DNA from: Laburnicola sp. R22_1
Lineage: Eukaryota > Ascomycota > Dothideomycetes > Pleosporales > Didymosphaeriaceae
Reading direction: 5' to 3'
Assembly (NCBI GenBank): GCA_014281115.1
Contig: JACONQ010000007.1
Location: 620,001-684,000, forward strand
DNA: 64,000 nucleotides
The notes under the pieces were generated by a model. That model was not told where the DNA came from, made no database searches, and saw nothing but the letters and a program-made list of their open reading frames with translations. Both the position numbers and the translations under genes were made by a program. Below are positions 10,590 to 63,180 of this stretch, piece by piece. The stretch's first letter is position 1, and each line of letters opens with the position of its first letter.

Positions 10590-13500
10590 CATGGGTTCTT
10601 CACGAGCTTTGAAGACATAGGGCTTTTGTGTTCCTGCTTTTTTTTTGGGGGGGGGGGGAAAGACTTAGGATGGGAGTACACGCCAGCGTAATACCTGCTT
10701 TTTGAGTTTTGGAAACCCCATGTCTGAGCTTTTTGCCTTTTTTAGGGAAGCCCGAGATGGAGATGAAGCGAAACACAAATTCTCCCATCATAATTGCCTC
10801 CCTACAAGTTTTGGATACTATAGGTGTTTCGATCCTTGATTTTTTAGGAAAGCCTAACATGGAAGCACACGCCAACATTATCGCTTCTGTGCGAGCTTTG
10901 GATACCACATGGCCTTCTGCTCTTGGTTCTTATGAAGTATCGAGATCTGCTCGTCGGAAGACAGTAGAACCATGAGAGTAATTTTAAGGCTTCGAGTCGG
11001 GACTCACACTCATCGGTGTTTTTAGAAGCTTGCTCTCACCCCATAGTTTTAGCAAGTGCGGTATTCATAACTCGAGAGCTCTTGTGTGAGTATGAATATA
11101 AGCGCGTTGGCCACGAAGAGCCATGGGGTTGCCGATTTCCGTTCTTGGTGGGTTCATTTGACGCTTTTGGGATTTTGCAGTGTGCGGTGCAGCATCGGGC
11201 AGGTAGTGGACATCTAGGGGGCGTTATGCGGATACCCATATGGGCGGAAGAAACATAATGGAAGTCATCGATTTGTTTGTGGTCGCTGGGAGAAGACATT
11301 GACTTCTTGGAGGGTATTCTGATTGCTAGTTTAAAACAGCCTGTTCAGGTAGTGCAGTTGGGAAATCGGGACTGGAGTACCGCACAAGGACATATTTGAG
11401 AAGCGACGCGAATTTCAATGGGGGAAAGATAACGCGAGCCTGGAAGCAGAGAGGAGCATCGCATGGTAGTGTGCGATTTTATCGTGGGATTTTTTTTTGA
11501 CAGTCTCCCAGCAGCTGAGCCCATGGCTCCTAGTTGAGTGCGGTTTGTAAAGCTGCATTTATGCTCGGTTTTGTTACTTTGGAATTCCTCCCAGCATTAG
11601 GCGTTTTTCCCAATGTTTCTGTTGTTCCACTCAATCCGCACGTGTGCATTGCTGTCTTGAATTTTTCAAGTCTTTCCCTCACGCATTAGGCGTAGTGATT
11701 CAGATTTTAATTAACAATAACAGGCGGCTTTTGCCGTTGGAAGACTGGCACAAATATACGAGACCATTTTATAAGCCAGTGATGTATATCGCCAACAGAG
11801 TCGCAGAACATATGTTCTCGTCTTTTGTGTTTTGGTGTGCTCAGCAACGAAGAATATTTTGGAGAAACGTTGATTTTCGACCTCCAGCTTCCCAAATGGC
11901 ACGCTCTTCAGGAGTTTTGGTCTTCCTCCCACCCATCAACAGCGCTACAGTAACTCTGGTAGACGGAGAGATAAGAGTAGGTACGCTGGAGCTGCGCAGG
12001 GCACCATATTCTGAACATCATTCCATTTTGAGAGAAATTTTAGACGGAGTGAAGCTGGATAGAGCGCAGGAACATGTCCCACCGCGTACCTGGTTCTAGT
12101 GAAAAGCTTCCAGAGGCTATGACAAGTGAGTGCTGCAGTACTTTTGGAGCGCATTCATTGTTGCTAATGCCCTTTTGGGTTTCTCGGAACAGAACCATTG
12201 TTCTCGATTTTGGATGTTTTTGATCTTCATTCTCCTCACACATAGTCCTTCCAGCTTTTAGTTTTAGATCCGTCTGCACACATCAGGGGTACCGGAAGCA
12301 ATTTTAGTAGATGGAAGAGGAAACGTGAAGTGTGAGGAGAGACGAGAAAGGGTCTACGTGGATTTTATATTCTTTCGATACTGGCTTCCATAATCACACG
12401 TAGGACCTCTACACAAAGTTTTGTGGCCCGCAGCGGGCAGACATGACATCATGGTTTTGTCTTTTGAGTGCGAGACGTCAAAACGAGGAAACCCCCAATA
12501 ATAGTCCAAAGACTTTAGTGGTTGGAAGCGCGTTATAATATAGTAATAGCAAGCATATATTTGTCAGGTCGTCTTTTAGAGTCTACAGTAGCTATGCATC
12601 CTTTAGGCGAGGTGCCGTCCATTGCCATGTCCGTTAAAGTTTTATAGTCTGCAGCGGGTAGCCATGGGCGCGAGGATTATTATTTTCAGCGCGCGAGACC
12701 CACCAACATGGCGCTGAAATGGACAATTTTTAGTCGCTTGTCACGAAGCTGTGAACCAGTGTGAAGGAGAAGTGGTCTGGAAAGAACGCCATTTTAAATA
12801 TCCATCTGCCGTCCGAACCTCCTCAAGATTTTGAGACAGGCCCATCTCTGCAGAACATTGCAGGGGACTCTGCCCACTTTGCTTGCCTTGCAAAGTTACG
12901 CGCCAGACGACATTGGCAAACTTGCCGAGTCGTCGAACACCATATGGTAGGTATTGACTGTTTTCAGATATAGCAAGACACAATAAGTGTAAGCTTTACC
13001 TACAAAAAAACAAGGCATTCATGGGATAGTTTAGGAATTTTAGAACTCGCCCATAGTGTGATTAATTGTGGGTTTCGAGCGCACAACACAGAACAACCAT
13101 CGAGTTACTCTTAACATTTTTTTGATCTTTAGTCGCACACAGCAGAGGGAACGCATCGAAGTGTGCCGTTGCGTTTTTTTCTGTTTTAGTAAAGTTAACA
13201 GACTCACAGAGAGTGGGTGGACTAGATGTCTGATCTAGTGCGGTATATATACGCGGACCGATGCAAACACAAGACATAATAGCTGGTCCAGAAATTTTAG
13301 AACGACTCATCGTTCCACAAGTCGAGATTCTTGGTATCGCACAGCAGTAGAACCATCTTCGGTTGGTTCGCGTTTTTTAGTTAAGCCGTGGGACTCTCAG
13401 GTGGAGTAGATGTCAGTCCCGGTGCGGTATATATACGCATACCGCGTGTTCCACCAGACGGCATAAGATGTAGCGGTTTGGTTTTGAAACCACTCATGAG

Positions 13501-15010
13501 ACCAGAATCCTAGAATTTTAGACTCGCACAGCGGACGAACCATGCAGGCTCCTTTTTCTTTTTTTTTTAGTAGAGCTAGCAGACTTGAAGAGAGAGTGTA
13601 TGCGAAGTCTATGACTGGTTTCAGAGCGGTATTTATACACCCGTAATATGCAAACGCAAGACGTGGCATGGTCACTTGAGGATCTTGGGCCCGGGCATAA
13701 ACCACTGACCGAGCCTTTTGAGCTCACACAGCAGAAGAACCAACTTTTAGCTGTGAAACTGTTTTTAAAGCCGGCATAAACCACCGACCAAGCCTTTTGA
13801 GCTCACACAGCAGAAAAACCATTTATCAGTTGTCAATTGTTTTTAAAAGTTGACAGAATTATAAAGGGAGAGAGTGTGTGAAATGCATGACTGGTTTCAG
13901 AGCGGTGTTTGTACATCCTGAATATGCAAACCCACGGCATTGAAACTAGCTCTCAATCTTTTATAGAACCAAGCTATGGTGCCATATCTCTAGCGTTTCG
14001 AGCTCACACAGCACAAGGCCCATGCTATCCTTGATAAGAGCTTTACGAAGCTGGCAGGCCCGCAGAAAAAGCATAGAGTACACGCCTTATCCAGCGCAGT
14101 ATTTATACTCCAGCGGCATAGGGGAACGCAAGACGGCATGTTACAACAACCCTCCCGACTCCAAGCATGCCTGTTGATCTCGTGTAATTTGATTTCCCGA
14201 TCCCGGAAGCAGAGACGACATGCCGACCTGCCATTGTTAATTTGAGACACCCACGTCGTCCCATCGTGCATATCAATTGGCTTTTACTGGTGAAGAGCAA
14301 CATGACAACTCCATTCATCTTTTAAAGTACGGAGGATTCCTGCAACTGATGGCTAACTCGGCTTTTCATGCGAGAAAGGCGGTCCCAAGGCGCGGCATAT
14401 GTGCATTTTGGCACTTGTTTTTTAACCAAGCGGTATTTACCAAGACAAGGAGCCACGCGGACACGTGAGGTAGTCCGATAATTTTAGGGCTTCGCACGAA
14501 CGGCATGAAGTTTTAGAATTGAAGCTTGCGACTTCGTCGGAGGAGAACACATTAGGCCATGTGAAAACGATTTTTTAATGAGAGAGCATGTTTGGTGGTA
14601 GTGTGGAGAGTACGCAAAGTGGGAAACAGGGTTTTTATATTTGGCAGTGCATTGGCGTTCCGTATGTCCCGGGGCGAGCTTGTATCGGTCGTACGACTAC
14701 GACAGGACGCAGGCTGGTAACGGGAGGGTCCGCGCTCGGCGACAACATTGGGGCCGTTAGGCATTGTTTTTTGTTCTCGAAAAAAGCTAGCAGCTTGAGC
14801 CCATTGCTTTTTTTAACCATGCTTTTTGATATCCCTTTCCGCCCACATGTGCATTCACCCGCAGATGTTTTGCGCCGCACAGGAAAGTCCATAGTCATTG
14901 TCGCTTGGTGTTTTTAATGAGGGAACGAAGCTGGACGTTGGTGTATAGAGCAAAACAGAAAAAGCTGAGCAAGAGCGTTTTTATATCTACCTGACATTCC
15001 GTCCCACATG
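10590..15010 (-). repeat. Array 1: diverged ~48-bp A-tract/ATG units, minus orientation
   Basis: Read on the minus strand, units consist of (C/T)(T)AAAAA followed about 23-24 bp later by ATGG/ATGGG, then ~20 bp of GC-richer sequence. Clear examples: TAAAAAA to ATGGGG near 10720-10750, CAAAA to ATGATGGG near 10785-10815, and AAAATA to ATGG near 12660-12685. On the plus strand the same signal appears as repeated CCAT...TTTTTAG. Units are strongly diverged and partly merged. Boundaries are approximate. The array is not AT-rich, unlike the RIP-damaged transposons, and encodes no long ORF. A T9G12 tract at about 10638-10659 is an expanded form of the unit's poly(C)-poly(A) junction. Confidence 0.7.
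13060..14140 (-). repeat. ~200-bp higher-order blocks with TATA-like boxes inside array 1
   Basis: Five diverged blocks share three landmarks in constant order (plus strand): CACAGCAG-type boxes near 13133, 13338, 13524, 13722 (and 13801) and 14002; a T-rich TTTTTAG; and a TATATATAC/ATTTATAC box near 13243, 13427, 13629, 13903 (degenerate) and 14101. Each TATA box is followed by an ATGCAAAC/GCAAGAC-type segment. Spacing is mostly 185-205 bp, with one 75-bp internal duplication near 13720-13800. Confidence 0.75.
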
Positions 15011-15062
15011 AGATAATATACAAGTACAACCGAAAAATTACATGTCCACCTCTTCAACTCAA

Positions 15063-16257
15063 TCACAACTGCTCAACCCACCTAAGAACCTCCTCCGCTC
15101 CCCTCTCCCACTCAACATGGTTCTGCAAATGATGTCCCAAGCCCTTTACCACCCTAAACCCCACACCATCCCACTCACCTCCCTGCTCGCGTCTCGATCC
15201 CGCATCAAATGCAGGCATACCCTCCAACGCACCCTTCCTCGCCAATTCCCTCCAAGAACTCTGATACCGCTCTGCCGCGTCTCGCAATACCGCCGGCGTA
15301 CACAAAACGTCCTTCTCCGCCGCCAACACAAGCATTCGCTGACTCACACTCGGTGCTTGATCCTGCCTCCCATCATGCTCAGAAGACGCCGAAGCTCCAC
15401 GGAGTCTCCACCCAACTATAGACGAAACCACATCCGGCCCAGTAACAATCCGAAAGAGAGCCTGCAAAGGCCAAAGCATAGATTCATACGGCGAAAGCAG
15501 CCTCTCAAACCGTCGTACAACCTCCACAGGCGTCGAGGGCGTGAAAAACGCCTCGTGGACTTGCGATGTCGTCGCAAGGATGCAGCGCGGGTGGAAGGCG
15601 CGATACGGGAAATGTATCGGCGCCGTCGCGGCCCAGAATGTGTAGCAGGACCATCTGTTCCAGTGAAGTCAGCTCGGCCGTATATATCTTTTTTGGTCAG
15701 GAGATGGGAAATGGATGGGTGACGTACGAGCCAAATCCCGGAACAGCAGCAAGTATGCAATACCCATGCACAGTAACCATCTTCCGACTCAATGCATACT
15801 GGCTAAGCGCACCACCAGCCGAGTGCGCGACGAGAATAACTCTTACTCTCTCATCAGCGTTCAATGCTCTCCTTTTCTCTTCCGTTTCCTCCACATATTT
15901 TACTCCCGCGGCAAGGTCTTCCGCCATTGTCCCCCTCGTCGTGAAGTACATCCGCCAAAAGCCGGGGTACCAGCTCTTTCCGTGCCCTCTGTAACTCATT
16001 GCATAGCATGGGATGCCTCGAGCTACGAAGTATTGCATGTAGGGAAGCCATACCTCGGCGCAGCCGAAGCCGCCGTGCGCGAAGAAGAGAGGTGGTTGGG
16101 CTGGATTGGACTGCGCGGTGGGTATGGCGGAGAGGAGTTCAAGGGGGCCTGAGGGCGTGTGGATGTAGGTTCTTGTGATGCCTTTGGGAAGCTCCGAAGG
16201 GGGAGGTGGATTTGGTGATGGGGCGCGCCATTGGAGTGCGAATGGACCGAATGGCAT
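15063..16257 (-). CDS. Alpha/beta hydrolase-fold protein (spliced, 373 aa)
   Basis: Exons 15728-16257 and 15063-15654 flank a 73-nt intron (GTACGT..ACAG, branch CTGAC). Joined length is 1122 nt. Hydrolase landmarks: oxyanion-side HGG at residues 61-63, SYRGHGKS at 88-95, nucleophile elbow AHSAGG with Ser146 (a G-to-A variant of GxSxG), a probable acid Asp292 in AAEKD, and His351 or His352 in GLGHH near the C-terminus. The order and spacing fit a serine hydrolase of the lysophospholipase/haloperoxidase-like AB_hydrolase group. The substrate cannot be told. No signal peptide is obvious; the N-terminus (MPFGPFALQW) is not cleavable-looking. An in-frame Met lies upstream at 16410, but that extension overlaps a GC-poor leader, so 16257 is preferred. 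It lies between array 1 and a transposon. Confidence 0.82.
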
Positions 16258-16624
16258 CGTAAACTTCCAAGTCACCGAAGTAGAGAGGTTGGTTAAGGTT
16301 TCAGCGTGATAAATTGATGGTGTATGTGGATGATGGCGACCATGGGCATTTATAATTCTGAGTCTATAGAACGCGCGAAAATAGATCGGGATGTCACAAG
16401 AACGCGGCAATTCGAGGTTCCGCCTTTGCTAAAAAGGGCATTCTCGGTGGTAGCTTCCTCAGCCGCACCTGAAACCTTCGACACGAAGGCATCGTAGCAT
16501 CCGCATATAATGCAACGGTAAAATTTTGACAGAGGTCATGATTCTGATGACTCTGTAGGTAGGGCTGAGGTTTCAAAACGGAGTTGGATGGTCGATGTTG
16601 TGGGGGCGATCGACTCGCCGGCTA

Positions 16625-18750: not shown

Positions 18751-18752
18751 TA

Positions 18753-19447: not shown

Positions 19448-19449
19448 TA

Positions 19450-20538: not shown

Positions 20539-23500
20539 ATGTCGAACTATCGCGGCGACGTTGAAGCTGGGGCTCAAGCGGAACATGAGTTTCACCCAGC
20601 ATCACCAGCCTTGCGACAGTCCTGGTCAACTCGCAGAGGTCCAACTCTGTCCCGCATATTCACTCATCTCTCTTTCTCTTCCAACAAGTCGACGAGCGAA
20701 TCCACAGATGACAAGCGTGGAAAGCTCGGTCTTAACCTCCTCTGCGACCGCGCCGAACCTCTTGTCGACATCGTATTCGTACATGGCCTTGGTGGAGGTT
20801 CCCGCAAAACTTGGTGTAAGGATGATGATCCAAGGCTCTACTGGACGAAAGAGTGGCTACAAAGGGATCCTGATTTTAAGAATGCGCGTGTATACAGCTT
20901 TGGATATGACTCGGAGTGGGTGACAAGGAAAAGTTCACGGCTGGATGTACATGACTTTGGAAAGTCTTTGTTATCCGCCCTATTCGGCGATCGTTTCATT
21001 AGGAGAGGACGAAATGTATAGCATACCTTACGCACAGGTGGCATTTTAGACTGACATGGACTTAGCTTCCGATCATACTCGTCGCGCATAGTATGGGTGG
21101 GCTCGTCATAAAAAAGGTAAACCTTCAATGCGCAGTCTTTTTGTACTACGCAGGCTCTCATACTAAGATGTCCCTAGGCTTTCCTTCTCTCACGTAATGA
21201 TCCAGCTTTCCAGGAGCTTGGTAAACGATTCCATTGCATGTATTTTCTGGCAACTCCCCATCATGGTGCTGCTTCAGCTGAACTACTCTCCTTCGTAGTG
21301 CGGGCCTCTTTCTCCGGAAGCCATCCTTTCGTAACCGACCTACATCAAGCCTCCCCTGCCATTCAGCAGATCAATGATGAGTTTCGGCACTCTGCTTTCA
21401 GCCTTGCGGGTGGTATTTTTTCGTTCTACGAAACGAATCCTATGTCACTATTCGGCATTGGCGAACGATTCATCGTCACCAAAACCTCTGCTATCACAGG
21501 TCTCCCAAACGAGCAATCAGCCCCTCTTCTCAATGCAAACCATCGAGAGGTCTGCAAATTCAAAACTCCCTCTGACGGCAATTTTTTGACGATCCGAAAT
21601 GCGTTCCTCATAACGGTGGACAAAATCAAAGATGCTTGTACGTTTGTTTCGATCGCTTTAGAGTTGTGTTTTTGTGTTGACATTTGTGAGGGCATTTTGC
21701 GCATCGTGAAGAGCTTCACAACCAGAAACGCCGCCTTCGCAGGTTTCTTTACATTTCAGAACAGCTAGAGAGAGGATCTATCGACGTTGACGAAACACTC
21801 GCAGAAGGCTCTTGCGAGTGGCTCGTACAAGATCGACAGTTTCAGGAGTGGCGCAATTCGCCCTCTTCCAATCCTCTCTTCTGGCTAAGCGGACGACCTG
21901 GTACGGGGAAAACTTGCTTGACAAATTACGTAAAAGAACACCTCAACGACCTAGGTTATGACATTAGCTCATTCTTCTTTCTAGCAGCTGACGAGGTTTT
22001 GACAACCTTAAGTAGCTGCCTTCTTTCGATAGCCTATCAAATGGCTTGTTCCAATACAGCCATTCGAGAAGCGTTCTTGGACATGCAAGAAGACGATGTC
22101 CAGATAGACAAGGATAAGCACTTTTCTATTTGGAAAAAGCTTTTCCAGGGAACGATTTTCCAGACAACACTTCTCAAACCGCATTTCTGGATAATGGATG
22201 CATTAGATGAATGCAAGCACGCACCAAGCCTCTTCCAGCTTATCCTAAAAACTCAGCACAACTTTCCTCTGCGCGTCTTCATATCATCCAGACCAAGCAG
22301 CGAGCTTCACGGTCAACTGCAGGGGATAACACCTCCGCCTCGACTCCAATCCATACTGCCGGAACATACTGAGCAGGACATTCGGCGGTACATCGAACAG
22401 AATGCGCATTTTACGATGAGAAGACAGGACACCAAAGAAAAGCTTGTGCAAACCTTGATCAAGAGATCTGAAGGCCTATTTCTCTGGGTCAAGCTAGTGA
22501 TGAGAGAGTTGAAACAAGTTTACAGCGATGCCACATTAAAGAAAGTCTTGGAAGATATCCCCCGTGGAATGGACGATTTATATCTCAGGTCGCTGCAACC
22601 ACTCAGCCAAGCTACTCACGGGAGGCCACTCGCGCGGTCGATCATGATGTGGACCTCTTGCGCAGTACGTCTACTACTGTCATCTGAGTTGCAATGCGCA
22701 CTGCATCTCCACATAGATGACGAGGTCTTCGACTTAGAAAGTCAGGTTTCCGCACTGTGCGGACATCTTGTCTATGTCGATCAGCATCATCGTGTTCGCA
22801 TGGTGCACCAGACGGCTCGGACGTTTCTTTTGAATCCCGGCAACCAATCTAAATTCTCACTATCCGAAAAACAATGCCATAGTGAGATGGCGCTCACCTG
22901 TCTGAAGCGGCTCATCCAAGATGACTTCAAAGCCCCACAGTCTCGAAAACAGAGTACCAGTTCGAATACATCATCTCCGTCTCCTTTCGACGGTTATGTT
23001 ACCAAATCATGGTATGAACATGTCATTAAGTCGTCGTCACAGCATCACGAATTGCACGACATGATCTACAAGTTTCTCAGTTCCCGTCAAGGGTACGTTC
23101 TCACTTGGATAGAACAGATTGCTAGATCGGGCGATCTCTCTCCTCTGATTAGAAGTGGTACGGCCTTGAGGACATACGTGAAACGGCGTGCAAACCATTT
23201 CCCAGTGATCAAGAAAGAAGGCGAGACCATACTATCTTGGAGTACGGATCTGATCCGTATCGTGTCGAAATTTGGACGCAGCTTACTCAGATCACCACCA
23301 TCCATCTATCACATCGTTCCCCCACTATGTCCTCGAGAATCTGCGCCGTACAAGCAGTTTGGACGCTCAAAACGAGGAATATCGATTGTAGGGCTGACTC
23401 CAATCACCTGGGAAGATCGCTTGGCTACGATTCCCTATCATAAAAGCACTGCTACATCCGTCGCCTGTGGAACGGTTCATTTTGTAATTGGAGCCTCGGA

Positions 23501-25526
23501 TAAACGAGTCAGACTATACACGATAGCCACCTGCCAGTTGTACACTGAATTCATCCACGGAGAAGCAATTCGATCGGTAGAGTTCAATGTTTCTGGCCAA
23601 ATGGTTGCATCAGCATCTCGGAAGTCTGTCTGTGTCTGGGATGTCGCAGACAAGAAGCTCATAGCACGGTTCACAATACCAAGGCCCAGTGTTGCAATGG
23701 TCTTTACAACCGACAACAAGTACCTGATGTTGGCATGCCACGATAATCAAATCCACACCTTCGATATCTTCGGTGCTGAAAATGGACATCGAGTGGAGCA
23801 GTGGTTCATTGACTATGATTCTGAACCAATCTATAGACCACCGGATACCGCCACCTTTTCTGTTGAGCAAAAATTGCTCGCAGTAGTTTATCGTGCAGGT
23901 CATATCCACATATGGAGCTGGGATGATGGCTACCTGGGATGCTGCAAGAAGCCTCACGCAGAATTCGAAGTCCATCCCTTCCATACAAGCTCATTATGCT
24001 TCAGTCCTGCACCAGAAACAAATTTACTCGCCGCAGCGTACGAGGGAGGAACGATACTTGTGCTTGATCCCTTGGAGGAAGACGGTATTGTCAAAGCTTC
24101 CTACATCACAGCCACCGACACGCAGGTCCTGTCTTGCTCACCCTGTGGAAGAACTCTTATAAGTGGAGACTCCGTCGGTTCAATCCGCATCTTCGACTTT
24201 GAGACGTTCCAAGACGAGAAATTAAAGCTATTGTATGTGATTCATGGGGAAGGAAATAACATTCGTAGCGTTGCGTTTTGTGCGGACAGTCTTCGTTTCA
24301 TCGATATACGGGGACAACGAACGAACATATGGGAGCCAGCGGTACTTGTTCGACGCGAGGTCAGCGAGGAGATGAGCGAGACGGCTTCACTGGAGGTTGA
24401 GGAGACTACTATACCACGGGCAAGAGAAATGGATATGATTACTGCAATGTCTCTCGAGGAACCTTCTGGGAAACACGTCTTTTGCGGAACCGAGGGCGGA
24501 TCAGTGAAAGTCTTCAGCACCTCCACGGGCAAGCTGATCCAGACGCTCTACGTACACAGTGGCGTGACTATTGCGCATATCATCTTCAACAATGGTGCGT
24601 GCATTATTGCAAGCGCCGATACCGCTAGCCGGGTACTTGTCTATCAACTCACAAGCATGCCCAACGGAATTGGCTTCGAGACTTCAGCACTACTTTTGGA
24701 CCATCGTATGCCAGAACCTATCGAAAAGCTGATATTTAGCCCAGATGTGACCCACATCCTGATAGGCACTACGACGGTCGACAGAGTGTGTTCCCTCGTT
24801 TCAAAAACTGAGGAGCCAGTGTCACTGACCTGGACAACGCGCAACAGGGGTGTTTGGATGCAGGATCCTGCATCTGCAGATGACCTTCTTCTGGTCACGG
24901 GAACTGTTCTCCGTGTTTACAGTTGGCAGAAACTCGAAACTCGAACATCACCTCATGGTATCCAACTAATGGTTGAGGAAGATGCTGCTGTACCAACTGA
25001 CTTCGAAATCCGTGCTGCGCGGGGAGTTTCCGGGAAGTACTTTGCCACGGAGTACTCAGCACTTACGGGAAGACGGCGCTCACGGATCAGAATGTTACTC
25101 TGGGAACTTGAAGATCTGCCACCAACTATCCCTGAAGAGCATGCCTCCCAAAAACCAGTCCTTCGCGACATTGGAGATGGAGTCGCACGGCTTTTGGGTA
25201 CACTTGGTTGCGTCATCTCCATCAGTGCAACTGCTATAATTTTTCTTGATGACGACGGATGGATTTGTTCTTTTGAATTATCTCTACTTGAGTGGGAGAA
25301 TGTGGAGTCAAGGGCGCGGACTTATAAGCGACATTTCTTCCTTCCGGCAGACTGGCTAAGCACAAATGACGAGTTGATAATTGCGTGTTCGGAAAAGGAT
25401 GATGTGGTTGTTGCTAGGGATGACGAGGTGGCCGTTATACGGCGAGGACTGGAGTGTGTACACGAAGTCGAATTCCCTGCAACTGCACTGAGCACGCAAT
25501 CAAGCATAGTACTAGAAGCTGCTTAG
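20539..25526 (+). CDS. NLR-like protein: alpha/beta hydrolase, NACHT, WD40-like repeats (1607 aa)
   Basis: Exons 20539-21015, 21066-21116, 21178-21637, 21691-25526 join to 4824 nt. Residues about 75-310 form a lipase-like domain of the DUF676/SesB type: VDIVFVHGLGGGSRKTW, AHSMGGLVIKK with Ser168, and FLATPHHGA. A linker (QKRRLRRFL, GSCEWLV) leads to a NACHT NTPase with P-loop GRPGTGKT (397-404) and Walker B WIMDALDE (495-502). LFLWVKLVMRELK and VHQTARTFLL motifs are typical of fungal NACHT C-flanks. From about residue 918 to the end are degenerate WD40-like repeats (ASDKRVRLY, SASRKSVCVWDV, GDSVGSIRIFDF, GTEGGSVKVFS). Such proteins act in non-self recognition and heterokaryon incompatibility; a specific role here is inference. 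The reading frame is intact. The repeats are diverged from one another, unlike the near-identical repeats of rapidly evolving HNWD genes. It stands 60 bp upstream of the transposon nest. Confidence 0.92.
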
Positions 25527-27592: not shown

Positions 27593-27678
27593 TACTTTGT
27601 ACTCGAGTCGATTATTCTATTAAGTCGATTACTTTGCTAAGACCCCACCAAAACGTACTATTAGCAATAGTACAACGC

Positions 27679-29420: not shown

Positions 29421-29463
<43 letters not shown>

Positions 29464-51760: not shown

Positions 51761-52343
51761 CATCGAATCATCTACTTGTTTCGTGTTGACCTATACTCAG
51801 GCACCAACTTATGACTGTACCAACGCTACGCAGCACCTCTACACATGCGCGACCAAATATAGTTGGCGGGATGTGCATAGGAAATACCTTGATGGTGCAA
51901 CATCTTGCTGCCATATGCACATCTCCACGGGCCGCAGGATTCGCCTATTACATCGCCACACAGCAGATTTCGAGCCGAGCTTCTGCGAAAGCGGGGTGCT
52001 GTGAAAAGCGATTTGATAATCACCTGCAGGCGTGTGACAGAGAGCGACCTTTGAGTCACTGGGCTTCGGGGTTTGGCTGCAGGTTGCAAGCTATGCTTCA
52101 AAGAAAAGGGCGGCGAGCTACTTTGAAAGCTCCAAATGCGCCGCTTGGAGCTACCGCATTGGTCCAGCGACACCGCAAAATCTAGTTCACCCGGAATCCA
52201 TCCGCACTTGCGCCCTTCAAGACAATCAGTCTTTTCCTCCCCTCCTGCAGGCCCTCAATTCTTTTCACCCAAAATCCTCCTGTCTTCGATTTGGGTGCAG
52301 ATGCGTGGTTGTTTGTGTAACTGAACAAACCCCGCAGCGCATC
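51761..52343. other. Intergenic: 3'UTR of the PQ-loop gene and MATE leader
   Basis: No ORF of interest. The MATE start is preceded by a pyrimidine-rich leader (52215-52320). Confidence 0.5.
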
Positions 52344-54416
52344 ATGACTCCAGCACAAGACCCCCAAACGGACGCCGAATATGCACCGATTTCCGACATA
52401 ACGACGCAATTGGAGAGGCTCTCGTCCTCGCCGCAAATTGCAGAAGAAGCGATTGCGAGGGACTATGAAGAAGACGATTCGCCATCCGAGGACGAGTCCG
52501 AGTCAGACTCTGATGGCTCATCGACCGTCCGACAATTCTCCATGATTCACTCGTTCCGCCGGCCGTCATACATGAACCCAGGCGCTCGCGGAACCGCCAT
52601 ATTCTCGTCCAGCGTGCCAACGAACAGCCACTTCATAGATACGAAGAAGCACAAATATTTATCTAAGAAAGAGCGTGAGGCGATGCGGGACGCGGAACGC
52701 AGTTTACTTCGCGATAACGATCTTTTGCCTCCAAAGCATCCGCGTCGAGGCAGCGAAGGACTACTTTCTGGCGGTCTTGCAAGGAAGCTGTCTCTTCCGG
52801 GGTTAAGAAAGATTAAGAGTGCTACGGTCGGTGGTGGGACAGAAAATGAACCGTCTGAGCGGAATCCCCTTTTGGGAGATCTGAGGCTGCCTTATGCAGG
52901 TCTTGATACACCGAAGACGATCGGTCAACGGTTCGAAGAAGCGGTTGCGTCGGGGCGACTGAGAACGACGTGGCAACGAGAAGCAAAGGTCCTGCTGAAA
53001 TCATCGGCACCACTGATTCTCACATTCTTATTGCAGTACTCGCTCCCTGTAGCAAGCATCTTCACAGTTGGACACATTGGAAAGATCGAACTCGGCGCTG
53101 TGAGTCTAGCAAGTAGTGCGTACCATCTATTTCCCCTCGCTAATGCAACGAGGCATGCTAATGAATCCAGTGACCGCATCGATCACGGGCTATGCTGTGT
53201 ACCAAGGCCTAGCCACATCACTAGATACCCTCTGCGCTCAAGCCTACGGGTCCGGCCGTCCTCATCTCGTGGGTCTCCAACTGCAACGAATGATATACTT
53301 CCTCTGGCTCGTCACAATCCCCATAACCATCATCTGGGCCTTCGGCCCCCAAATCCTCGCCCACATCGTCCCCGAGCAAGAAACCGCCCAACTCGCCGGG
53401 CTCTACCTGCGGATCCTCATATTCGGCGCCCCCGGCTACGCCGCCTTCGAGAGCGGCAAGCGCTACCTTCAGGCACAAGGCCTCTTCAGCGCAAACATGT
53501 ACATCCTCCTAATCTGCGCCCCGCTCAACGCCCTGCTAAACTACGTCTTCGTCTGGCGCCTACAATGGGGCTTCATCGGCGCCCCAATCGCCGTCGCCAT
53601 AACCGAGAACATCATGCCCGTCCTGCTCTTCTGCTACGTCCGCTTCGTCAACGGCTACCAATGCTGGGGCGGCTTCGACAGGCGGGCGTTCAAGAACTGG
53701 GGTCCGATGATCAGACTCGCGATACCGGGGCTCGTCATGGTACTCGCGGAATTTCTTGCATTCGAGATCCTGACCTTGTCAAGCAGTTGGCTTGGTCCTA
53801 CTACGCTGGCTGCGCAGAGCGTGCTAGGTTCCGTGACGGGGATCACGTTCCAGATCCCGTTTCCGATGGGCGTGGCAGCGAGTACGCGGATAGCAAATTT
53901 GATCGGCGCGACGCTGGACGAGCACGCGAAGATGGCGGCGAAAGTGGCGTTGGTGTTTTCCGTTATTGTGGGCTTCTTTAATCTGCTACTTTTGTCGCTG
54001 CTTCGGAATTATATCCCGAGATTGTTTACGCCGGATGAGGAGGTCATTGATCTTGTTGCTAGACTCCTGCCTCTCTGCGCGGCGTTTCAGCTTTTCGACG
54101 CTATACAGGCGAATTGCAACGGTATTTTGCGGGGGCTGGGGAAGCAGGAGATTGGGGGGTATATTGCGCTCTTTGCGTACTATGTTATTGGGCTGCCTAT
54201 TAGTTTTGGGTTGGGGTTTGGGGCGGGGTGGGAGTTGTATGGACTTTGGGCTGTAAGTGATCCTTTCGAGCTCTGGGTGAATAAGAGACATGCTAATAGA
54301 GATAGGGACCTGCGATTGCGCTTGGTGTCGTTGCGGCGATTGAGGGTGTTTATATTTATAACACGAGCTGGGAGAACGCGGTGATGGCTGCTGAGGCGCG
54401 GAATGCGAATGCGTAG
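52344..54416 (+). CDS. MATE-family multidrug/organic cation antiporter (654 aa)
   Basis: Exons 52344-53115, 53171-54252 and 54306-54416 join to 1965 nt. The long soluble N-terminus (about 1-215) is Ser/Asp/Glu-rich (EDDSPSEDESESDSDGSS) with KKHKYLSKKEREAMRDAER. The MATE core begins near TTWQREAKVLLKSSAPLILTFLLQY, with the first MatE half containing GYAVYQGLATSLDTLCAQAYGSG, a signature of eukaryotic MATEs. The second half holds FQIPFPMGVAASTRIANLIGA and CNGILRGLGKQEIGGY. Twelve membrane segments are predicted. These vacuolar or plasma-membrane H+/Na+-coupled antiporters export toxins or drugs. Both introns are 53-55 nt. An unspliced read-through of intron 1 gives a different frame, so splicing is required. 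ATG 52344 is the first in-frame Met after a stop-free leader. Substrate unknown. Confidence 0.93.
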
Positions 54417-54795: not shown

Positions 54796-57700
54796 ATTAA
54801 AAGAAGCCTTTATGAAGGCACATGTGCTCCGTGCCAGATCCAAAAGACATTCCCAAAGATATCATGGGCGTCTGTCTCCCCGCCGTCCAGAACCAAAAAT
54901 ACAGCCTTCAAGTCGATATGTGGATTCTGCTCTGCGGCGTTTAAAAAACCAGAATAGAGACCATATGTGGACTCTGCTCTGCGGCGTTAAAAAGTGGTCC
55001 CTAGAGGCCCTATGTGGTCGTCCCGCGGCTCCAATTTTGAAATTCCTAAACGCCGAAAGGAATCGTACATGGGCGGTTCTCGCGGCGGTTGGAAAAACGA
55101 CAGTCGTCGGACTGTATGCTGGGTGGGTTTTGGTTTTGGGTTGTAAAAATAGCGACGGCAAGCTGCCATGGGTGCTCCGGCTGTCGCGCACGAAGCGTGT
55201 CTATCTACCTTAGTCTGCCTGCTACAAAACCAGCTAAGGAACCGGTCATGGGCGCTCTTCTCGTCATTCGGAAAGCCCTACTGCGCATCTTATGCTGGGC
55301 TGGTTTTGGATTGCAAAAATGACGAGGACCCTAACGCCATGGGAGTGGTCTTCATGTGGGTCTCTTCTCCACTGGACCCGGCGATTCAAAATCGTGTCCT
55401 ACCTTGAGTATGCAGTCTTGCCACCGCTTGCGCTTTCATTGCTAAAAGAAAGTCCGCTCGAGGTTCTTCATGCGCGCTTTCTCTGGCTTAAAAGACGAAA
55501 CGATAACTTACAAATGTGCCGTCTCCACTCGACTCGGCGACGCAAAACGGCTCTTCACTCCCACTATGCTCTCCTTCCATTGCTTCTGCTTCATTCCAAA
55601 AAGCAAAAAAGTGGATTATCATGCGCGATTTCTCTGGCTTAAAAGAAACGTAGGACACACATACATGTGCTCTTCTTACTCAACTCAGTAGATTGAAAAC
55701 GCTCCAAAGTATTGTAATGCAGTCTTCCATCTCTAAAAGAACACATTTGATATGCTAGATGGGCGCTTTCCCCGGCACCCACAGACTCAAAATCACAATC
55801 TCTCGCATCATGTGCTGAGCTTTTGCGTCTGGTTGCAAACAAAATCTCCACTGGCACAAGCATAATTTCTGTTCTAAAACCGCTTCACTGGGCCAGTGTG
55901 GCTGGACTTTGGACGCTCTGTGTGTATAAAGCGCGACAAATCCTCTGTATGTGGAGTTTTCACTTCCACTACGGCTTTGTGGCTACTAAAAAGACTTGTT
56001 GTTTGGTTCTATGTGGGTGGTGGACTGGGGCTTTAAAAACAAGAAAGTGTTAACATTATGTGTGTTTGGTCTGAGAGTCTAAAAAAAAATTGGGATCCTT
56101 ACATGTGGTTCCAGTGGCGGGAAGGACAACGCATAAAGAAATTGCTACGTCGACCGTCATGTTTTCTCCCCGCTCCTTCGCTGCTCAAGCCCGCATCTAG
56201 ACATCGAGCGCGCAGAAAACATTGAATTGACAAACTGGTGCTGTATATTTCTATCTGCTCTGTGGACTCGTCAAAAAATTAAGACCGATACAATATGGAG
56301 GGCTGGGACATCTAAAATGTCGAAAGTACAACTTGATGTGGAGAATTCGGGACTTTCAAAATTCCCCCAATCTTCCGAACATGTGTTGGAGAAGCCCAGA
56401 CTACATCAAAATTTCTGGAAGGATCGCTGATGTGTCTGCCAGGGCGAACCAAGATAAAAGCAGGAGCGGCCTAAATAAAACACGGACAGACCAATGCTAT
56501 GGGGGAAGCAGGAGGATTGGATATATAAACCTCCTCTTGTTGTTCTTTCTTCTTCACACTGCAGTGTTGCCTGGCTTGTCCCAAAACCTTTGTGGCTGGG
56601 TTCCATGCCTGGTGTTTGTTTCAAACTCGATCTAACAAACATTATGTCCTCTTGCTCCGTGTGGCTAAATACGATATACAATGAATGAATGCGTTCTCCA
56701 TTCCTCTCTGCCTGTCTCTGAAAGGATTCTAAACAGTCGCGATGTTGGATTCCTCTCTCTGGCGCTGAATACGATCTACCTTTCCGCCCTGGGATACAGC
56801 ACATTCGACTCTAAAAACAACGATATTCCAGCACATGTGCTCCTCGGGCCTGCGTGCTTCTAAAGTAGCACAGGCAACTTTATGCTTCTTCTGCTTATCT
56901 AAAGTGCTAAAACAGCGTTGCATGCGTGAAGACCGCCTCTTGCAAAATCCTCCGTAGCGGCAATCCATGGAGGGGAGTTGGGTTTCTAGAGACCTTGGTA
57001 GACATGTTCAGAACAGCATTGAATCAGCATTATGTCGGGCTCTCTTACTTCTTCTTGAAATTTCCAAATAACTGACTAGGGTCGACTACGCTGCGTTATA
57101 TTCTTCCAGTTCGAATTTCCAGACGTGAGCCTCTTGGACATAAAAGTAAACGACATCTGGTTATGTCGCTTGGGTCTTGGCCCTTGGGCGTTTAGTTCTG
57201 AAGCGATGTGAGTTGGATTGTGGGTATATAATGCCTCTTTTGGGGCTGTTTACTTGTCTACACTTCTCTTGGGTATCTGAGTAAAAATTCCTTAACCGAT
57301 GGGTCGATGTCGGTCTGGATCTGGGTCTAAATATCACAACCTCCAAACAGTATGCCCTCTTAGTGCAAGACGGCCTCCATATCTCTAGCCTTAAAACTAC
57401 CTGTCTAAATGTTCATATGATTCTAAAATTGCTCCTGGATATCCATCATGTTGTTTCTTTCTTCGGGTAGCCAGCATCTATGATGAGGTTGGCTTAAAAC
57501 CATGAGAATATTCAAAGTTTGAGTATACTGCAAGTAAAACAAAAACACGGCATGCCCCATATATGCGCGGTATTCTGCACATGCCAGCTCATACAACCTC
57601 TTCCGGGCTGGGTGTCAAAGTTAGCCGTGGCAAACATGAGGGCGGGCTGGTGTATAACAACAGTCTGCCAATAGACGCAAAAGACGTTAAATGAGAATCA

Positions 57701-57960
57701 AATCAAGACAAAACAAACGCATGTCTTTTTTGGGAAGATCACCTTTAAACAGAAATGAATGTGAAAACAATGCAGACCTGCACGAGGTGACGCGGTGCCG
57801 TCTTGGAGTCTACATCTTCAAATGCGTTTATGCAGCGCTTTGCAAATTTGGATTGGCAAGGCGTATGGGGCTTGAGATAGTTGAGTGCTACCCCAGCAGC
57901 TTTCCCGCACAGCGTTTTTACCGTGTACCGATAGGGCGTGAAGTCTTGTCTTTTTGAATG
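54796..57960 (+). repeat. Array 2a: ~48-bp A-tract/ATG units, plus orientation
   Basis: A-tracts (TAAAA/CAAAA) start at 54798, 54841, 54894, 54942, 54988, 55046, 55091, 55144, 55224, 55271 and 55314. The following ATG(T/G/C)GG boxes start at about 54822, 54864, 54918, 54964, 55012, 55069, 55116, 55168, 55248, 55292 and 55340. So period is about 43-58 bp (one 80) while A-tract-to-ATG distance is 21-26, mostly 23-24. Further clean runs: 55443-55490 and 56313-56460 (TAAAAT, CAAAAT, CAAAAT, each 23-24 bp before ATGTG). More than 40 recognisable units. The last part (57000-57960) is more decayed. No conserved frame. Occasional TATATAAA boxes with a CT-rich downstream stretch occur (e.g. 56520). 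Confidence 0.8.
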
Positions 57961-57970
57961 AATGCTCAGT
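57899..57970 (+). repeat. Diverged third copy of the 75-bp repeat from 43.9 kb
   Basis: TTTCCCGCACAGCGTTTTTA then CGTGTACCGATAGG, about 80 percent like the tandem pair at 43947-44091. Confidence 0.75.
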
Positions 57971-58099
57971 TCAAGTCGATTTCAAGACCAGAGACTGGGA
58001 CACTTCATTTTAATCTAGTGCTAGCCAAGGAGAGCGGATACAACCGCATTTTATCTATGTGGAGAACGCACGAGCACCTTAAAATAGCTTCTTGAAACC

Positions 58100-60181
58100 C
58101 TAAACTAGAAAGAATTCACTCTCGTGGCGATGACCCAGAAGCTCCCCATCCATGACCCCATCACAATAAGCCTCCCCTTGGTAGAAAAACACCTCCTTAT
58201 CACCTCGTCTACCCTTGGGTCTAAGCACAGAACAAACTCGTCCTCCCAGGAATACAACAACGACGTCACCAGGGGACATGAGCGATGTCCCCATACCTAC
58301 GTAGCCCTTTTGGGTAATGTACAGACGCATCCCATTCATCTTAGCCATGCTCAACCGATAGATGCCCGGCTCCTCATCAGGCGGCAACGCCTCCACACCC
58401 CTCTTAAACTCTTCCAAACTCTGCGTAGTCTTCCATGCCTCGAACCAATCTTGAGTTTTGTTCCAGTCTTCGAAAGCCTTGGCTGTTTGGGAGTCTCCTT
58501 TCCGAGCCCCCTTTGGCGACATTGCTTCGCATATGTCCGCTATGGGAGTGCGCCACACTGCCTCCTTCCGGCGTTGTTCTGACATATATATGGGCTGATT
58601 TTTCATCTCTGATATCTTGCAAAGAAATCGAGCCTGGGATAACCACTCTTGGTGGCGCAAGGGATCACCTCCCTCGTCGGAGAAGACGCTCCCTACGTCC
58701 TCTACGGTGTCGACTAGGAAACCCGTCAGGCCCAAAATTGTACTATCAGCGCTCGGTAGGACAACCGGCAGAACATCTCCAGTGGGCGAAAAGAGATGTT
58801 GCTCGCCTTGTCGGGGGTAGGGATAAAAAGACGGTCGTAGGTTCGGATGCCAATCGGGCACCCATGAAGGGAGATCGACGTTGTCCTTAGGAAATTGAAC
58901 GAAAGATAGGATCTCAAGGTTGCCACATTGAATTATGGCCCGCGCTGCATCCGTAAGAGCCTGTAGCCTCGACTTAGTATAATCAGCCTGGAAGCCTACT
59001 TGTTTCAACTGTTCCGCGTCGCAAGCAAGGCCGAGCAGTCCAAATACGCGATCACGCGCGTCGGTAGCTTGAGTCGGACGCTGGACATAAGCCTTGCGTA
59101 ACAACTCCAACAAGGTGTCTCCGGGCCCAACTCCACGCTCAAACTTCAGTCTTTGGGCTCGCGCGCTGAATATAGGGGGCGACGGATCGTTCATGATGAT
59201 GTCTGACAAGAGCGACTGGCAATCATCAGAGAGCTTGGGCTGAGAAGAGACTCCGTAGATAATAATCAGGCGCGTGAACTTGACAAAGTCAACTGGCACC
59301 CTCCGAAAGCCACGTACAAAGTGGGGGTCGGCGCCGAGACAGAACTCTTGTATTATCCAGACACGCGTCATCCAGGGACATTTGTCCCAGTCTGCGATGG
59401 CTTGGAAGCACTGTATCAGGCTTGCATTCGCCTTCTGAATGATGGCACTTAGCTCTTGCCATCTTGGGTCGTCTGGGTTTTTGTCGGAAAGAATGCCATG
59501 CAGGACCGGAAAATTCTCTGGAGTGTAGTAGTCCTGCAGTTTCATATCAAACGCTGCCTGGCCGATTTCAGCATAGAAGTCCATAGCATCGTCTGAGTTC
59601 TTCTCGGCCGGACCAAGCCACACGAGCACCTGTTCGGCTGCACTGTAGATTTGACCCATTATTCGGACCTGGTGGGTTTTCTCCTGGTCATCCTGCTGAT
59701 TGATACAGATTTGGTCGATCCAGATAAGAAGGGGCTGAGACTTGCTGCGGAGGTGTCTTAAGGCGGTGTCAAGAGATTCTGTAATGAGGAGTTGGGCGCC
59801 ATCGATATCGATGGAATGAGTGAATTTGGAGACTCTCCAGGTGTATGAAAGAGCTTTAAACGGATATGGCGAGTCGATGGGAGTGGTCTTTATGCTGCCG
59901 TATAGGGATGAATTATGGTGAACGGCGCTAGACTCCAATTCATCTGGCCCGAGGATGGAGGGGTGGAGTTGGAGAAGACGGATGTACAAGGAAGCTGAAG
60001 GTAGCTTGTCATAAGAGAATATGCAGACTCCGTTCCTGTCGTCCGCTGAGGATGCGGTAGGCCCAGTGCTATTTGACTTTTTCAAATGGTCGTCCATCTC
60101 AAATTCCAGCGCTGCTTTCAGCTTGAAGGAGGAGATGGATACATATGTGACTTCGGTTGTGATACCTGGTGACAGTCGCAT
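58100..60181 (-). CDS. HET-domain protein (693 aa, intronless)
   Basis: The HET domain at about residues 108-290 carries the three classic blocks: FKALSYTWR (108-116), LLIWIDQICINQQDDQEKTHQV (151-172) followed by IYSAAEQVLVWLGP (178-191), and WMTRVWIIQEF (~275). RVFGLLGLA and the C-terminal block LYITQKGYVGMG...GDVVVVFLGG (about residues 623-650) are typical of the long HET-6/Tol-like class. HET proteins trigger programmed cell death on fusion of unlike hyphae. This gene may instead have another, fungal NLR-like role. The frame is intact, without RIP-type stops. An in-frame Met at residue 29 (MDDHLKKSNS) could be the real start. It sits between arrays 2a and 2b in opposite orientation to their units. 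Confidence 0.92.
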   Translation of the reverse strand: MRLSPGITTEVTYVSISSFKLKAALEFEMDDHLKKSNSTGPTASSADDRNGVCIFSYDKLPSASLYIRLLQLHPSILGPDELESSAVHHNSSLYGSIKTTPIDSPYPFKALSYTWRVSKFTHSIDIDGAQLLITESLDTALRHLRSKSQPLLIWIDQICINQQDDQEKTHQVRIMGQIYSAAEQVLVWLGPAEKNSDDAMDFYAEIGQAAFDMKLQDYYTPENFPVLHGILSDKNPDDPRWQELSAIIQKANASLIQCFQAIADWDKCPWMTRVWIIQEFCLGADPHFVRGFRRVPVDFVKFTRLIIIYGVSSQPKLSDDCQSLLSDIIMNDPSPPIFSARAQRLKFERGVGPGDTLLELLRKAYVQRPTQATDARDRVFGLLGLACDAEQLKQVGFQADYTKSRLQALTDAARAIIQCGNLEILSFVQFPKDNVDLPSWVPDWHPNLRPSFYPYPRQGEQHLFSPTGDVLPVVLPSADSTILGLTGFLVDTVEDVGSVFSDEGGDPLRHQEWLSQARFLCKISEMKNQPIYMSEQRRKEAVWRTPIADICEAMSPKGARKGDSQTAKAFEDWNKTQDWFEAWKTTQSLEEFKRGVEALPPDEEPGIYRLSMAKMNGMRLYITQKGYVGMGTSLMSPGDVVVVFLGGRVCSVLRPKGRRGDKEVFFYQGEAYCDGVMDGELLGHRHESEFFLV

Positions 60182-60560
60182 CGTCGTATTGGTCGCGCAT
60201 GGACTAAGCTCAAACTGTTCAAAGGACCTGTCTATACGAGCCCAGTTTCAGCTGTGGCGGGGTCAGTCAAAAATACCGCACGAAGCTGCGTGTACAAGCG
60301 AGAACGAGAACGTTAAATATGTGGGTTATTGAGAAGCCACGGTTCCATAACTTCGCAGAGGAAGTGAGGAAAGTGGTTGGCCAAGTCAGTACAGATGGAA
60401 TCCTAAGTGGCCCAACCTTACTTCGCGGAGGTTCGGCAAGAGGAATGCACCATTGTTTACCCTCTCCAGATGTGTATGTATGGATTGATAGCCGTCACGA
60501 ATACGGTACTGGGACAAAAGTTTAAGTACAATGTGTCACCTCAGGATAAGCAATACCAAG
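60182..60560. other. Upstream region of the HET gene
   Basis: Probable promoter and leader; no clear TATA box within 100 bp of 60181. A CA/GA-mixed stretch with short ORFs only. Confidence 0.4.
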
Positions 60561-63180
60561 GCTAAATGTATTCAAAAAAAAATTGTCATGTAGCTGTAAA
60601 ATCAAACACTTGCATCCCTACCTTATATCATATCATTATAAGAACAGAGAATTGCCATCTACTGGTTGCTTCGAAGTTCTACCAGGGCCAGCGTACTGAA
60701 AGTTCTCGCATGTCCAATTGTCGAAGAAGCGTCCTTAACGATATCCGCATATCCATCTCGAATCACTAAAATTGAGAGATTTCTATATAAATCCCCATGA
60801 AAATCTTCAAACTTTGTTACCTCCCACCCCATGTTATTTTTACCAACCTTTAAAATCAGTGTTGGCAGAGATGGATGCCTTGTTGGTTGTTCTAAAAGCA
60901 AAAGAAGCCATGAATGTGGCCCTGTCCGGTTTGAAATCCATAAATCCTGAAAAGCATGTCACCAAGGCTATAGTGATTGCGCGGTAACCTAGCTCTAAAG
61001 AAGAACTGGACTCGGCGATGCTTTACTTCTCTTGGCTGATCCTCATGACTCATTAGAAGGCTTTTTTATTTCAAAAAAAAAAAACAGATGAAGATCAAAG
61101 ATGTGCTTCTCCACGTCCAATCTGCGTGATAGGTTTAAAAAGTCCAGAACCTCATGCAATGTCCTTCTTCCCCGTCTCATACTCAATCATACAATGCACG
61201 ACGGCTCTTGTAACTTCCACGAGAAAATACCACGTCACTCTACAACTACGAAAATCTTCACGTATAAAGTCGCCCTCGTGCACAAGGAGCCTTCTTTTCT
61301 CACACGTGACTCACACACGCACGTCTTACTAAAAACTAGTCCACCCTACCACATGGCTTTCGTGTGCGTCAGATCGAATGAGAGATTACCATGTCGGAGT
61401 CTTGTTTTCTATGCAAAATCAGCGCTTTCATCCCCTTGTGGCGGGCCTCTCCTGCATTCGGAAGAAGTTAAAAAACTCAGATCTTCTCCAGCATGGGGCT
61501 GCCCGTCGAGACACATATTGCTTCAATCACAACTAAAGCAAAAAAGGCCATGCTGCAAACTCAGAAGGTTCAAGATTATAAAAGCCTGTCTCGCACGCCA
61601 AACAAGCTTTGCTTCTGCCCATACCAGCTTCTCTTGTTCTTAAAGACGCACGGCAAATGGAACTATGTCTTTCGCGGCATCTAAAGAGCTCTTGCTAGAG
61701 GTATCATGCCGAAGCTTTGACCTGGTGGACCAAAAATCTATTACGATTATGCTAAATGTCCGGCGCCCTACTCTCGGAGCTACTTACAAAACCAAGAGTG
61801 TCTTCAATCATGTGTCTTTCCCAAGGAACCATCTTCCAAACTATGTCGTCGTACCTTCTCTCTTACTACAGCCATTAATTGGACAAGAATCTCCAGAACT
61901 TCAATAGCCGCATACAAAATGTCGCTATTTTTCATCATAACTCTCTCACAACTTCCTCCTCCGCTTCTCTATTCTATAGAAAGGGACTGGTAGGAGTTAT
62001 GGGAGCGCCTTCTCTAAAAGATAAATTACCATGCCCCTATGTGGGTTCCTCCTTCCGCACACAAAATCAAAGCACAAACCCCATACAAGTATGCCTTTGC
62101 TTAATCGCGGTCTTATCAAAGCTGCAGTATTGAGGGATATGTGGTGGTCGTGCGGTTCCTCTCCTCCTTAAAATGTACAATCATTGTAACATGTTCTAAC
62201 GAAAACCTCTCCAGGAACTTATCCATGTGTTGCGCGCCTGGCGACCTCCCTCCACCCCTGTTCGAAATGTTTCTAGTCGAGCCATATTGAAGGACAGCTC
62301 TTCTCGCCCACCTACCTCTCACCCTCTCACTCTACACGCACATACCCTCGCTCTAAAAAAAATTGTTGGCGAATCACGCATGTTCTTTTTGAGTCTCTAA
62401 AGGGCCAAATTTCCACCCTCATGTCTCTCCTTCCAGCGCCGGAGCAAAATTTAACCAAAAATACTTCATGTGCGGCCACCTCCCAGCACCCCGACCAAAA
62501 ACAAGCTTTTCTTCCGCCATGCGGTCTGCTCTGCTTCCTCCTCGGATCCTCAAATCACACCCGTCTACCCACCCAGTCAAACAAACGAAATAATGACCCA
62601 TGCGCCGCGGCACCCAACCCTCTCCATCCATCCATCCACCCCCCTCAACCAAAACCTCAGACAACCACGGATATATAAACCACCCCTCAACACCACCTAC
62701 CTCTTCTTCCACCCACACTCTTCCTCCAAACCATTAAAACTATGTGAGGTAGCGGCGATGTGCTCTCCGCGTCCCCCCCCCAAAAAAAATCAATAAGTCA
62801 TGCTATGCGGCGTCCTAGCTTCTTCCTTGCTCTAAAACACCCCCACACGCCAACTTACGCTCCCCCACCTCTCCAGCACTAAAACCCTCTAAATCCAACT
62901 ATATGCTCTACCCTCCGCACCAACCCTCCAACGCTAACTTCCATCAACAAACCTCATGCGTCCACCGCCCCACCCTGTTCTACACCCACTAAAATTTCGA
63001 CATTAAGCGACCATGGCGAGTCGAGTCGTGTCCTCCCTTCCACGCTATTAAACAAGCGCTCTAAAAAAAAACGCTCACGAAAACCCCCATGTCCGCCTTT
63101 GCTTTCCTGCCCCACACACAACTGCACACCACACCACACCACTGTCAGTGAGCATACTAAAAAAACGAGATCGTCCTGTC
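60561..63180 (+). repeat. Array 2b: ~48-bp A-tract/ATG units, plus orientation
   Basis: Continuation of array 2a beyond the HET gene. Clear units: TAAAAACTAGTCC.. to ATGG at 61329-61352 (23 bp); TAAAAAACTC.. to ATGGGG at 61469-61493 (24 bp); TAAAAGATAA.. to ATGTGGG at 62015-62039 (24 bp); CTAAAAAAAAACGC.. to ATG near 63060-63090; ACTAAAAAAACG.. to ATG near 63157-63182. A C9A8 tract occurs at 62774-62790. Some A-tracts are expanded to 9-13 A. Units are more diverged than in 2a. Confidence 0.7.

What the first reader, a model, noticed from the sequence alone, without database searches (positions are those of the whole stretch)
10590..63180. Phased ~48-bp A-tract / ATG array in two opposite-facing stretches
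Over about 10 kb in total (10.6-15.0, 54.8-58.0 and 60.6-63.2 kb) the sequence repeats a module: (T/C)AAAA, then ATG(G/T)GG 23-24 bp later, then ~20 GC-richer bp. In array 2a the A-tract starts step 43, 53, 48, 46, 58, 45, 53, 80, 47, 43 bp. The spacing between A-tract and ATG stays nearly constant while the bases between are mostly free. Steps are not multiples of 3, so it is not a coding repeat kept in frame. It is neither AT-rich nor RIP-decayed. Arrays 1 and 2 run in opposite orientations, flanking the NLR/transposon region and enclosing a HET gene. I know of no described family with this layout.
Basis: partly seen in the sequence, partly recalled or inferred. Interest (0 to 1): 0.9.

Follow-up and report, generated by a model that had tools for sequence, protein, structure and literature searches.

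The report
Fungal repeat-spacer arrays, spacers replaced whole
Scattered through this fungus's genome are arrays in which related short DNA repeats alternate with unrelated spacers of about 18 letters that are likely swapped out whole, a layout that resembles bacterial CRISPR arrays although no relative of the CRISPR integrase Cas1 was found in the genome.

Summary
The three stretches hold 31, 31 and 15 modules YAAAA-(21 to 24 bp)-ATG against 2.2, 1.5 and 1.1 in dinucleotide shuffles; control stretches are at chance. Similar arrays lie on many contigs: roughly 3-4 thousand modules, about 1% of 64 Mb (estimate).

The layout is repeat-spacer. Homology inside arrays tends to begin at ATG and end at the A-tract. 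These repeats are array-specific, A-poor and about 13-75 bp long. The ~18 bp between A-tract and ATG are unrelated even where both flanks are homologous: 28 of 35 pairs, flank identity 0.76, spacer 0.34, background 0.31. In 6 pairs that kept the spacer it diverged like its flanks (0.77 vs 0.79). So spacers look replaced whole, not eroded. A-tract centre and ATG lie about 21 bp apart, two helical turns. Nine spacer lineages tested occur nowhere else in the genome as exact 17-mers.

Cas1 was not found; coding-repeat and hairpin readings failed, poly(A)-signal and promoter readings found no support. Likely mechanism: site-specific spacer exchange. Main rival: concerted evolution of repeats around free linkers. 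Function untested.

The parts
10719..14938 (-). Array 1: modules from A-run 14915 down to 10743, minus strand, starting about 130 bp beyond the ORF at 15063-15668 (minus)
   Evidence: 31 YAAAA modules vs 2.2 expected
54799..57867 (+). Array 2a: modules from A-run 54799 to 57844, plus strand, about 0.4 kb downstream of the MatE ORF (plus)
   Evidence: 31 YAAAA modules vs 1.5 expected
60564..63184 (+). Array 2b: modules from A-run 60564 to 63159, plus strand, beyond the 5' end of the HET ORF
   Evidence: 15 YAAAA modules vs 1.1 expected
55470..55513 (+). Example unit: repeat with A-tract 55470-55493, spacer 55494-55513
   Evidence: left flank 0.95 identical to the unit at 55621, spacers unrelated (0.40)
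55621..55664 (+). Partner unit: repeat with A-tract 55621-55644, unrelated spacer 55645-55664
13698..13818 (-). Two units of array 1 (A-runs at 13798 and 13719, minus) that kept the same spacer (identity 0.88): a retained pair
58100..60247 (-). HET-domain ORF (715 aa) between arrays 2a and 2b; neighbour, not part of the arrays
   Evidence: PF06985 1.5e-30; homologues
52038..54384 (+). MatE ORFs on the 5' side of array 2a, same strand
   Evidence: PF01554
15063..16428 (-). Alpha/beta-hydrolase ORFs on the 5' side of array 1, same strand (Pfam match on 15697-16428 only)

Best explanation
These are repeat-spacer arrays in which array-specific repeats running from an ATG box to a YTAAAA box alternate with unrelated ~18-bp spacers, and each spacer is likely exchanged whole by a protein predicted to hold the two boxes on one face of the DNA. 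Shown: the fixed two-box module, its confinement to arrays, the repeat/spacer borders at the boxes, and the either-kept-or-unrelated state of spacers at equal flank divergence. Inferred: that tandem duplication makes the units, that a site-specific activity then replaces the spacer at near-constant length, and that one protein contacts both boxes. Untested and speculative: that the arrays serve as a store of unique ~20-nt sequences, for instance transcribed as small RNAs; the genome does carry several Argonaute genes.
For:: of 192 starts of ungapped homology blocks (96 blocks in 17 arrays, found without reference to the boxes) 46 fall exactly on ATG and 17 one base off (about 4 each at random); of 192 ends, 36 fall at A-run start+4 and 11, 14, 13 one to three bases on (about 4 each); identity runs about 0.7-0.95 up to the A-tract (58 left-anchored pairs) and drops to 0.24-0.59 after it; it is 0.45 just before ATG and 0.79-0.96 for most positions after it (67 right-anchored pairs); 35 pairs with both flanks homologous (control with shuffled right flanks 1-4 in 10 runs); 28 have unrelated spacers (0.341; background 0.307) at flank identity 0.764; 6 kept the spacer (0.769) at flank identity 0.787; 1 lies between; the order of two alternating repeats is kept along arrays while both spacers differ (L036, L035), as expected if spacers change after duplication; start-to-ATG distance grows from 22.0 to 24.3 as the A-run grows from 3 to 8 or more, so the distance is set from the A-run centre, about 20.5-21 bp to ATG, two helical turns; neighbours of A-tracts lacking ATG keep their next 18 bp better (mean 0.65, 9 pairs) than intact modules (0.44, 27 pairs; p 0.014); 11 spacers of 9 lineages found as 17-mers only at their own places. 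Piwi domain at about 8 places.
Against: No enzyme was identified and none with this activity is known to me. The 35 pairs come from 7 of 18 arrays, share units, and are not independent; 5 of the 9 broken-module pairs come from one array (L038). Most repeats within an array are only weakly related (mean pair identity 0.29-0.40 vs 0.29-0.36 shuffled), so the clear cases are a minority. One spacer pair is intermediate (0.50), one retained pair is only 0.63. Constant spacer length could come from selection on box spacing. No expression, binding or population data exist here.
Confidence: 0.4

Rival explanations
1. Concerted evolution around free linkers: the two boxes are an ordinary functional site (protein binding or transcription start), the ~18 bp between them drift freely at constrained length until unrelated, and the repeats are kept alike by gene conversion or selection; conversion stops where spacers are already unrelated, which would give the two-state picture without any exchange enzyme.
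For: Needs no new enzyme; explains box spacing and uniqueness of spacers. Spacer dinucleotide bias resembles natural DNA of this genome (r 0.86 with coding, 0.74 with noncoding; shuffled null 95% 0.69, maxima 0.90 and 0.80), as long drift would give.
Against: Conversion would have to act on islands of about 13-30 bp between unrelated spacers, short for homologous recombination (general knowledge). At equal flank divergence spacers are kept or unrelated, and some repeats are 23/24 or 24/24 identical beside unrelated spacers. It gives no reason why the freely drifting stretch is always bounded by intact boxes.
Confidence: 0.35
2. Clusters of thousands of tiny transcription units, like nematode type-I piRNA genes: A-tract as TATA-like element, ATG as start, the A-poor ~24-bp repeat as the short transcript, the spacer as untranscribed promoter DNA.
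For: Two boxes two helical turns apart; A-poor downstream segment (A 0.15); homology blocks equal the predicted transcripts; Argonautes present. Compatible with either of the other evolutionary readings.
Against: The module is not enriched outside arrays nor upstream of 37 long ORFs, so it is no general promoter of this genome; no RNA data; PIWI-clade piRNAs are not known from fungi (recalled).
Confidence: 0.15
3. Tandem poly(A)/termination signals: A-rich hexamer, about 20 nt, cleavage at YA, then G/T-rich A-poor downstream element, placed after genes.
For: Order and distances recall the mammalian poly(A) site as described in PMC12667328 (passages). Of 19 array borders that I could assign, 15 face a gene's 3' end and 4 a 5' end (hand tally; about 40 borders in all, the rest unassigned).
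Against: Single modules are not enriched in the first 400 nt after 44 ORF stops (0.09 and 0.11 per 200 nt, background about 0.1) nor anywhere outside clusters; the same review passage says yeast signals lack such downstream elements. Does not explain spacer replacement.
Confidence: 0.05

Closest known systems
CRISPR arrays
   Same: Short repeats alternating with unique spacers of nearly constant length, all in one orientation; spacers change whole while repeats stay related.
   Different: Eukaryotic nuclear DNA; repeats only about 65-95% alike, of variable length, often two kinds alternating; every array has its own repeat; spacers about 18 bp; no Cas1 found; spacers without a source in the own genome (9 lineages).
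Nematode type-I piRNA (21U-RNA) gene clusters
   Same: Thousands of very short units, each with its own upstream box at fixed distance, clustered in intergenic DNA (PMC6436959, passages).
   Different: Different motif (GTTTC core there), no tandem repeat units there as far as I recall, no evidence of transcription here, borders of replacement at the boxes not described there in the passages seen.
Minisatellites / dimeric satellite DNA
   Same: Tandem units of 48 or about 96 bp that duplicate locally.
   Different: An ordinary satellite diverges along its whole unit; here ~18 bp between two boxes are unrelated while the rest is homologous. Tandem Repeats Finder reports none of the three window arrays as such an array.

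Membership tests
CRISPR-Cas array | unique spacers of near-constant length between repeats | tested here: met
CRISPR-Cas array | near-identical repeats of constant length within an array | tested here: not met
   repeats about 13-75 bp, most only weakly alike
CRISPR-Cas array | cas1 in the genome | tested here: not met
   PF01867: no match in G000; rings in 9 of 14 control genomes
CRISPR-Cas array | spacers derived from invading elements | tested here: inconclusive
   9 lineages have no exact 17-mer source in the own genome; viruses not tested
Nematode type-I piRNA genes | Ruby motif (GTTTC core) upstream of each unit | not tested
   the boxes seen are YTAAAA and ATG; no scan for GTTTC was made
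Nematode type-I piRNA genes | short capped transcripts and PIWI-bound 21-mers | not testable with these tools
   no RNA data; Piwi domains (Argonaute) present
Poly(A) signal | present at ordinary gene 3' ends | tested here: not met
   no excess in 0-400 nt after 44 ORF stops; tested with the strict module, and these loci are enriched for arrays
TATA-Inr core promoter | present upstream of genes | tested here: not met
   no excess upstream of 37 ORF starts; ORF starts are not mapped transcript starts
Ordinary minisatellite | all parts of the unit diverge alike | tested here: not met
   28 of 35 pairs have unrelated spacers at flank identity 0.76
Coding repeat (e.g. repeat peptides) | unit steps keep reading frame | tested here: not met
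   39/27/40 by frame; L038 units of 96, 98, 105, 98 bp
RNA hairpin genes | spacer pairs with its own neighbour repeat | tested here: not met
   own vs permuted repeat: energy difference 0.06 +/- 0.13 plus strand, -0.05 +/- 0.13 minus strand

The most novel reading that the evidence does not exclude
A eukaryotic spacer-exchange system: thousands of two-box cassettes in a fungal genome whose ~18-bp interiors are actively rewritten by a dedicated enzyme unrelated to Cas1, giving the cell a renewable library of unique ~20-nt sequences, plausibly small-RNA guides.
Probability: 0.25. Interest if true: 0.95.

Novelty: categorically new. Interest (0 to 1): 0.8.

Why it matters
Arrays of related repeats with wholly unrelated, constant-length spacers are the mark of CRISPR; eukaryotes are not known to make them (recalled). 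If spacers are exchanged, a fungus has an unrecognised programmed diversification of its nuclear DNA, and the arrays give thousands of sites at which to catch the enzyme. If instead conversion maintains them, they are a sharp test case for how short repeats can stay alike around unrelated linkers. Either way a two-box module covering about 1% of a genome has no described equivalent in the searches made (listings only).

Tried and rejected
Coding repeat: no frame. RNA hairpins: A-tract to repeat folds better than mononucleotide shuffles (-0.95 +/- 0.10), but the same with a permuted repeat of the same array, so it is base composition; spacer alone no better than shuffled. Spacers in hand by eye seemed palindromic; the same test shows no excess. 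Pol III terminator on the other strand: spacers do not avoid AAAA (34 vs 29 expected) or TTTT (15 vs 17). Poly(A) signal and promoter: see rivals. Rfam: 0 matches in the window and in seven array loci. tRNA: 0. Cas1: none. Spacer origin in DNA in hand (288 kb): 15 units with a second 14-mer, several of them copies within their own array, about 7 expected by chance. Retroposition of the repeat as a short RNA with A-tail: would explain the borders, but not the kept alternation of two repeats.

A first pattern search (CTAAAAN{17,19}CATGTGG) gave 13 hits against 18 for its reversed control, so no excess by count; yet 11 of the 13 lie in arrays of 6-23 modules per 1.5 kb. The second pattern gave 159 against 30, but its list was cut (C1 to C14 shown) and some hits belong to one repeated, transposon-like sequence, so the genome estimate (4,154 modules, 0.6 Mb, from 10 pattern hits in 11 arrays) is an upper, rough figure. 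Arrays L015 and L016 (8 and 7 modules) were left out of the array statistics.

One search (36 of 58 spacers joined) found nothing, not even their own places: the search is blind to such short pieces and says nothing.

Full report
What is there. The window is C24:620001-684000 of an unnamed 63.93 Mb genome in 26 contigs. Its HET protein is closest to a metagenome protein (81%) and, among named ones, to Dactylonectria (49%), so a Sordariomycete-like fungus is likely. The three claimed stretches hold the module far above dinucleotide shuffles (31, 31, 15 vs 2.2, 1.5, 1.1) and only in one orientation each. Control stretches of the window are at chance. In 15 arrays 341 of 648 YAAAA tracts have ATG 21-24 bp on (151 at 22; about 15 expected per offset).

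Genome-wide. Pattern search in the own genome gave 159 hits against 30 for the reversed pattern, clustered on many contigs; a stricter one gave 13 against 18, 11 of the 13 inside arrays. Eight unselected 10-kb stretches (500 kb into contigs 1-8) contain no clear array; one strand of L034 is a weak candidate, 8 modules in about 5 kb. Arrays run from about 1 kb to more than 9 kb (L017: 64 modules). The estimate is 3-4 thousand modules, about 1% of the genome (rough). After masking of clusters, isolated modules are at chance (51 vs about 46).

Repeat and spacer. Ungapped self-similarity of the arrays, computed without reference to the boxes, has its starts on ATG and its ends on the A-tract. Anchoring on either flank shows the same step at base resolution. 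In L038 a unit of about 97 bp repeats with about 75 bp homologous and a different 17-21-bp spacer each time. In L036 and L035 two repeats alternate, order kept, while spacers differ. The strictest set is 35 pairs with both flanks homologous (1-4 in shuffled controls): 28 spacers unrelated at flank identity 0.76, 6 kept with spacer identity equal to flank identity, 1 between. A spacer that merely evolves fast would fall with flank divergence and show intermediates; this two-state picture speaks for replacement, or for conversion that halts at unrelated spacers. The pairs overlap and come from 7 of 18 arrays.

Geometry and composition. The A-run start moves away from ATG as the run lengthens and its end moves closer; the centre stays about 20.5-21 bp from ATG (centre computed by hand), so both boxes face the same side of the helix. 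Inner spacer bases are A 0.31, T 0.23; repeats A 0.15. Spacers carry a dinucleotide bias like natural DNA (r 0.86 with coding, 0.74 with noncoding; null 95% 0.69).

Surroundings. Of 19 array borders that could be assigned, 15 face a gene's 3' end and 4 a 5' end (six of the nine same-strand upstream neighbours have Pfam support, three are ORFs only). Loci were partly chosen for arrays, and half of the borders are unassigned.

Mechanism. I commit to tandem duplication followed by site-specific replacement of the spacer between two boxes (0.4). The conversion rival (0.35) needs no new enzyme but must act on homology of about 13-30 bp. Use as small-RNA genes is compatible with both; the genome has Piwi domains at about eight places, three near full length without stops, four of the places within 75 kb of C10.

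Known kinds. CRISPR is the nearest layout but membership fails (repeats unlike and of variable length; no Cas1). Literature searches in the held library listed no equivalent; two papers were seen in passages only.

Noticed in passing
13240-14110: Array 1 also carries, every ~180-280 bp, a near-palindromic TATA element (GCGGTATATATAC and variants, near 13241, 13423, 13623, 13903, 14098), suggesting a higher-order repeat.
   Followed up: partly
29092-29946 and 42800-43657: Two AT-rich stretches about 13.7 kb apart share several tandem repeats in the same order (12-, 10- and ~150-bp units), like the direct ends of one long element.
   Followed up: no
21690-25526: Open 1278-aa NACHT-type (NPHP3_N) plus WD40 NLR-like ORF in lower-GC DNA between the arrays.
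   Followed up: no
G000:C10:129427-203256: Four Piwi-domain places within 75 kb, some with stops inside, hinting at a local Argonaute expansion with decay (not examined for introns).
   Followed up: partly
L035:1777-2712: One spacer is found three times after the first repeat kind while the spacers around it differ.
   Followed up: yes
G000:C1:568983-568999: A 17-mer one base from an L035 spacer outside the known arrays; a single such match is near chance in 64 Mb.
   Followed up: no
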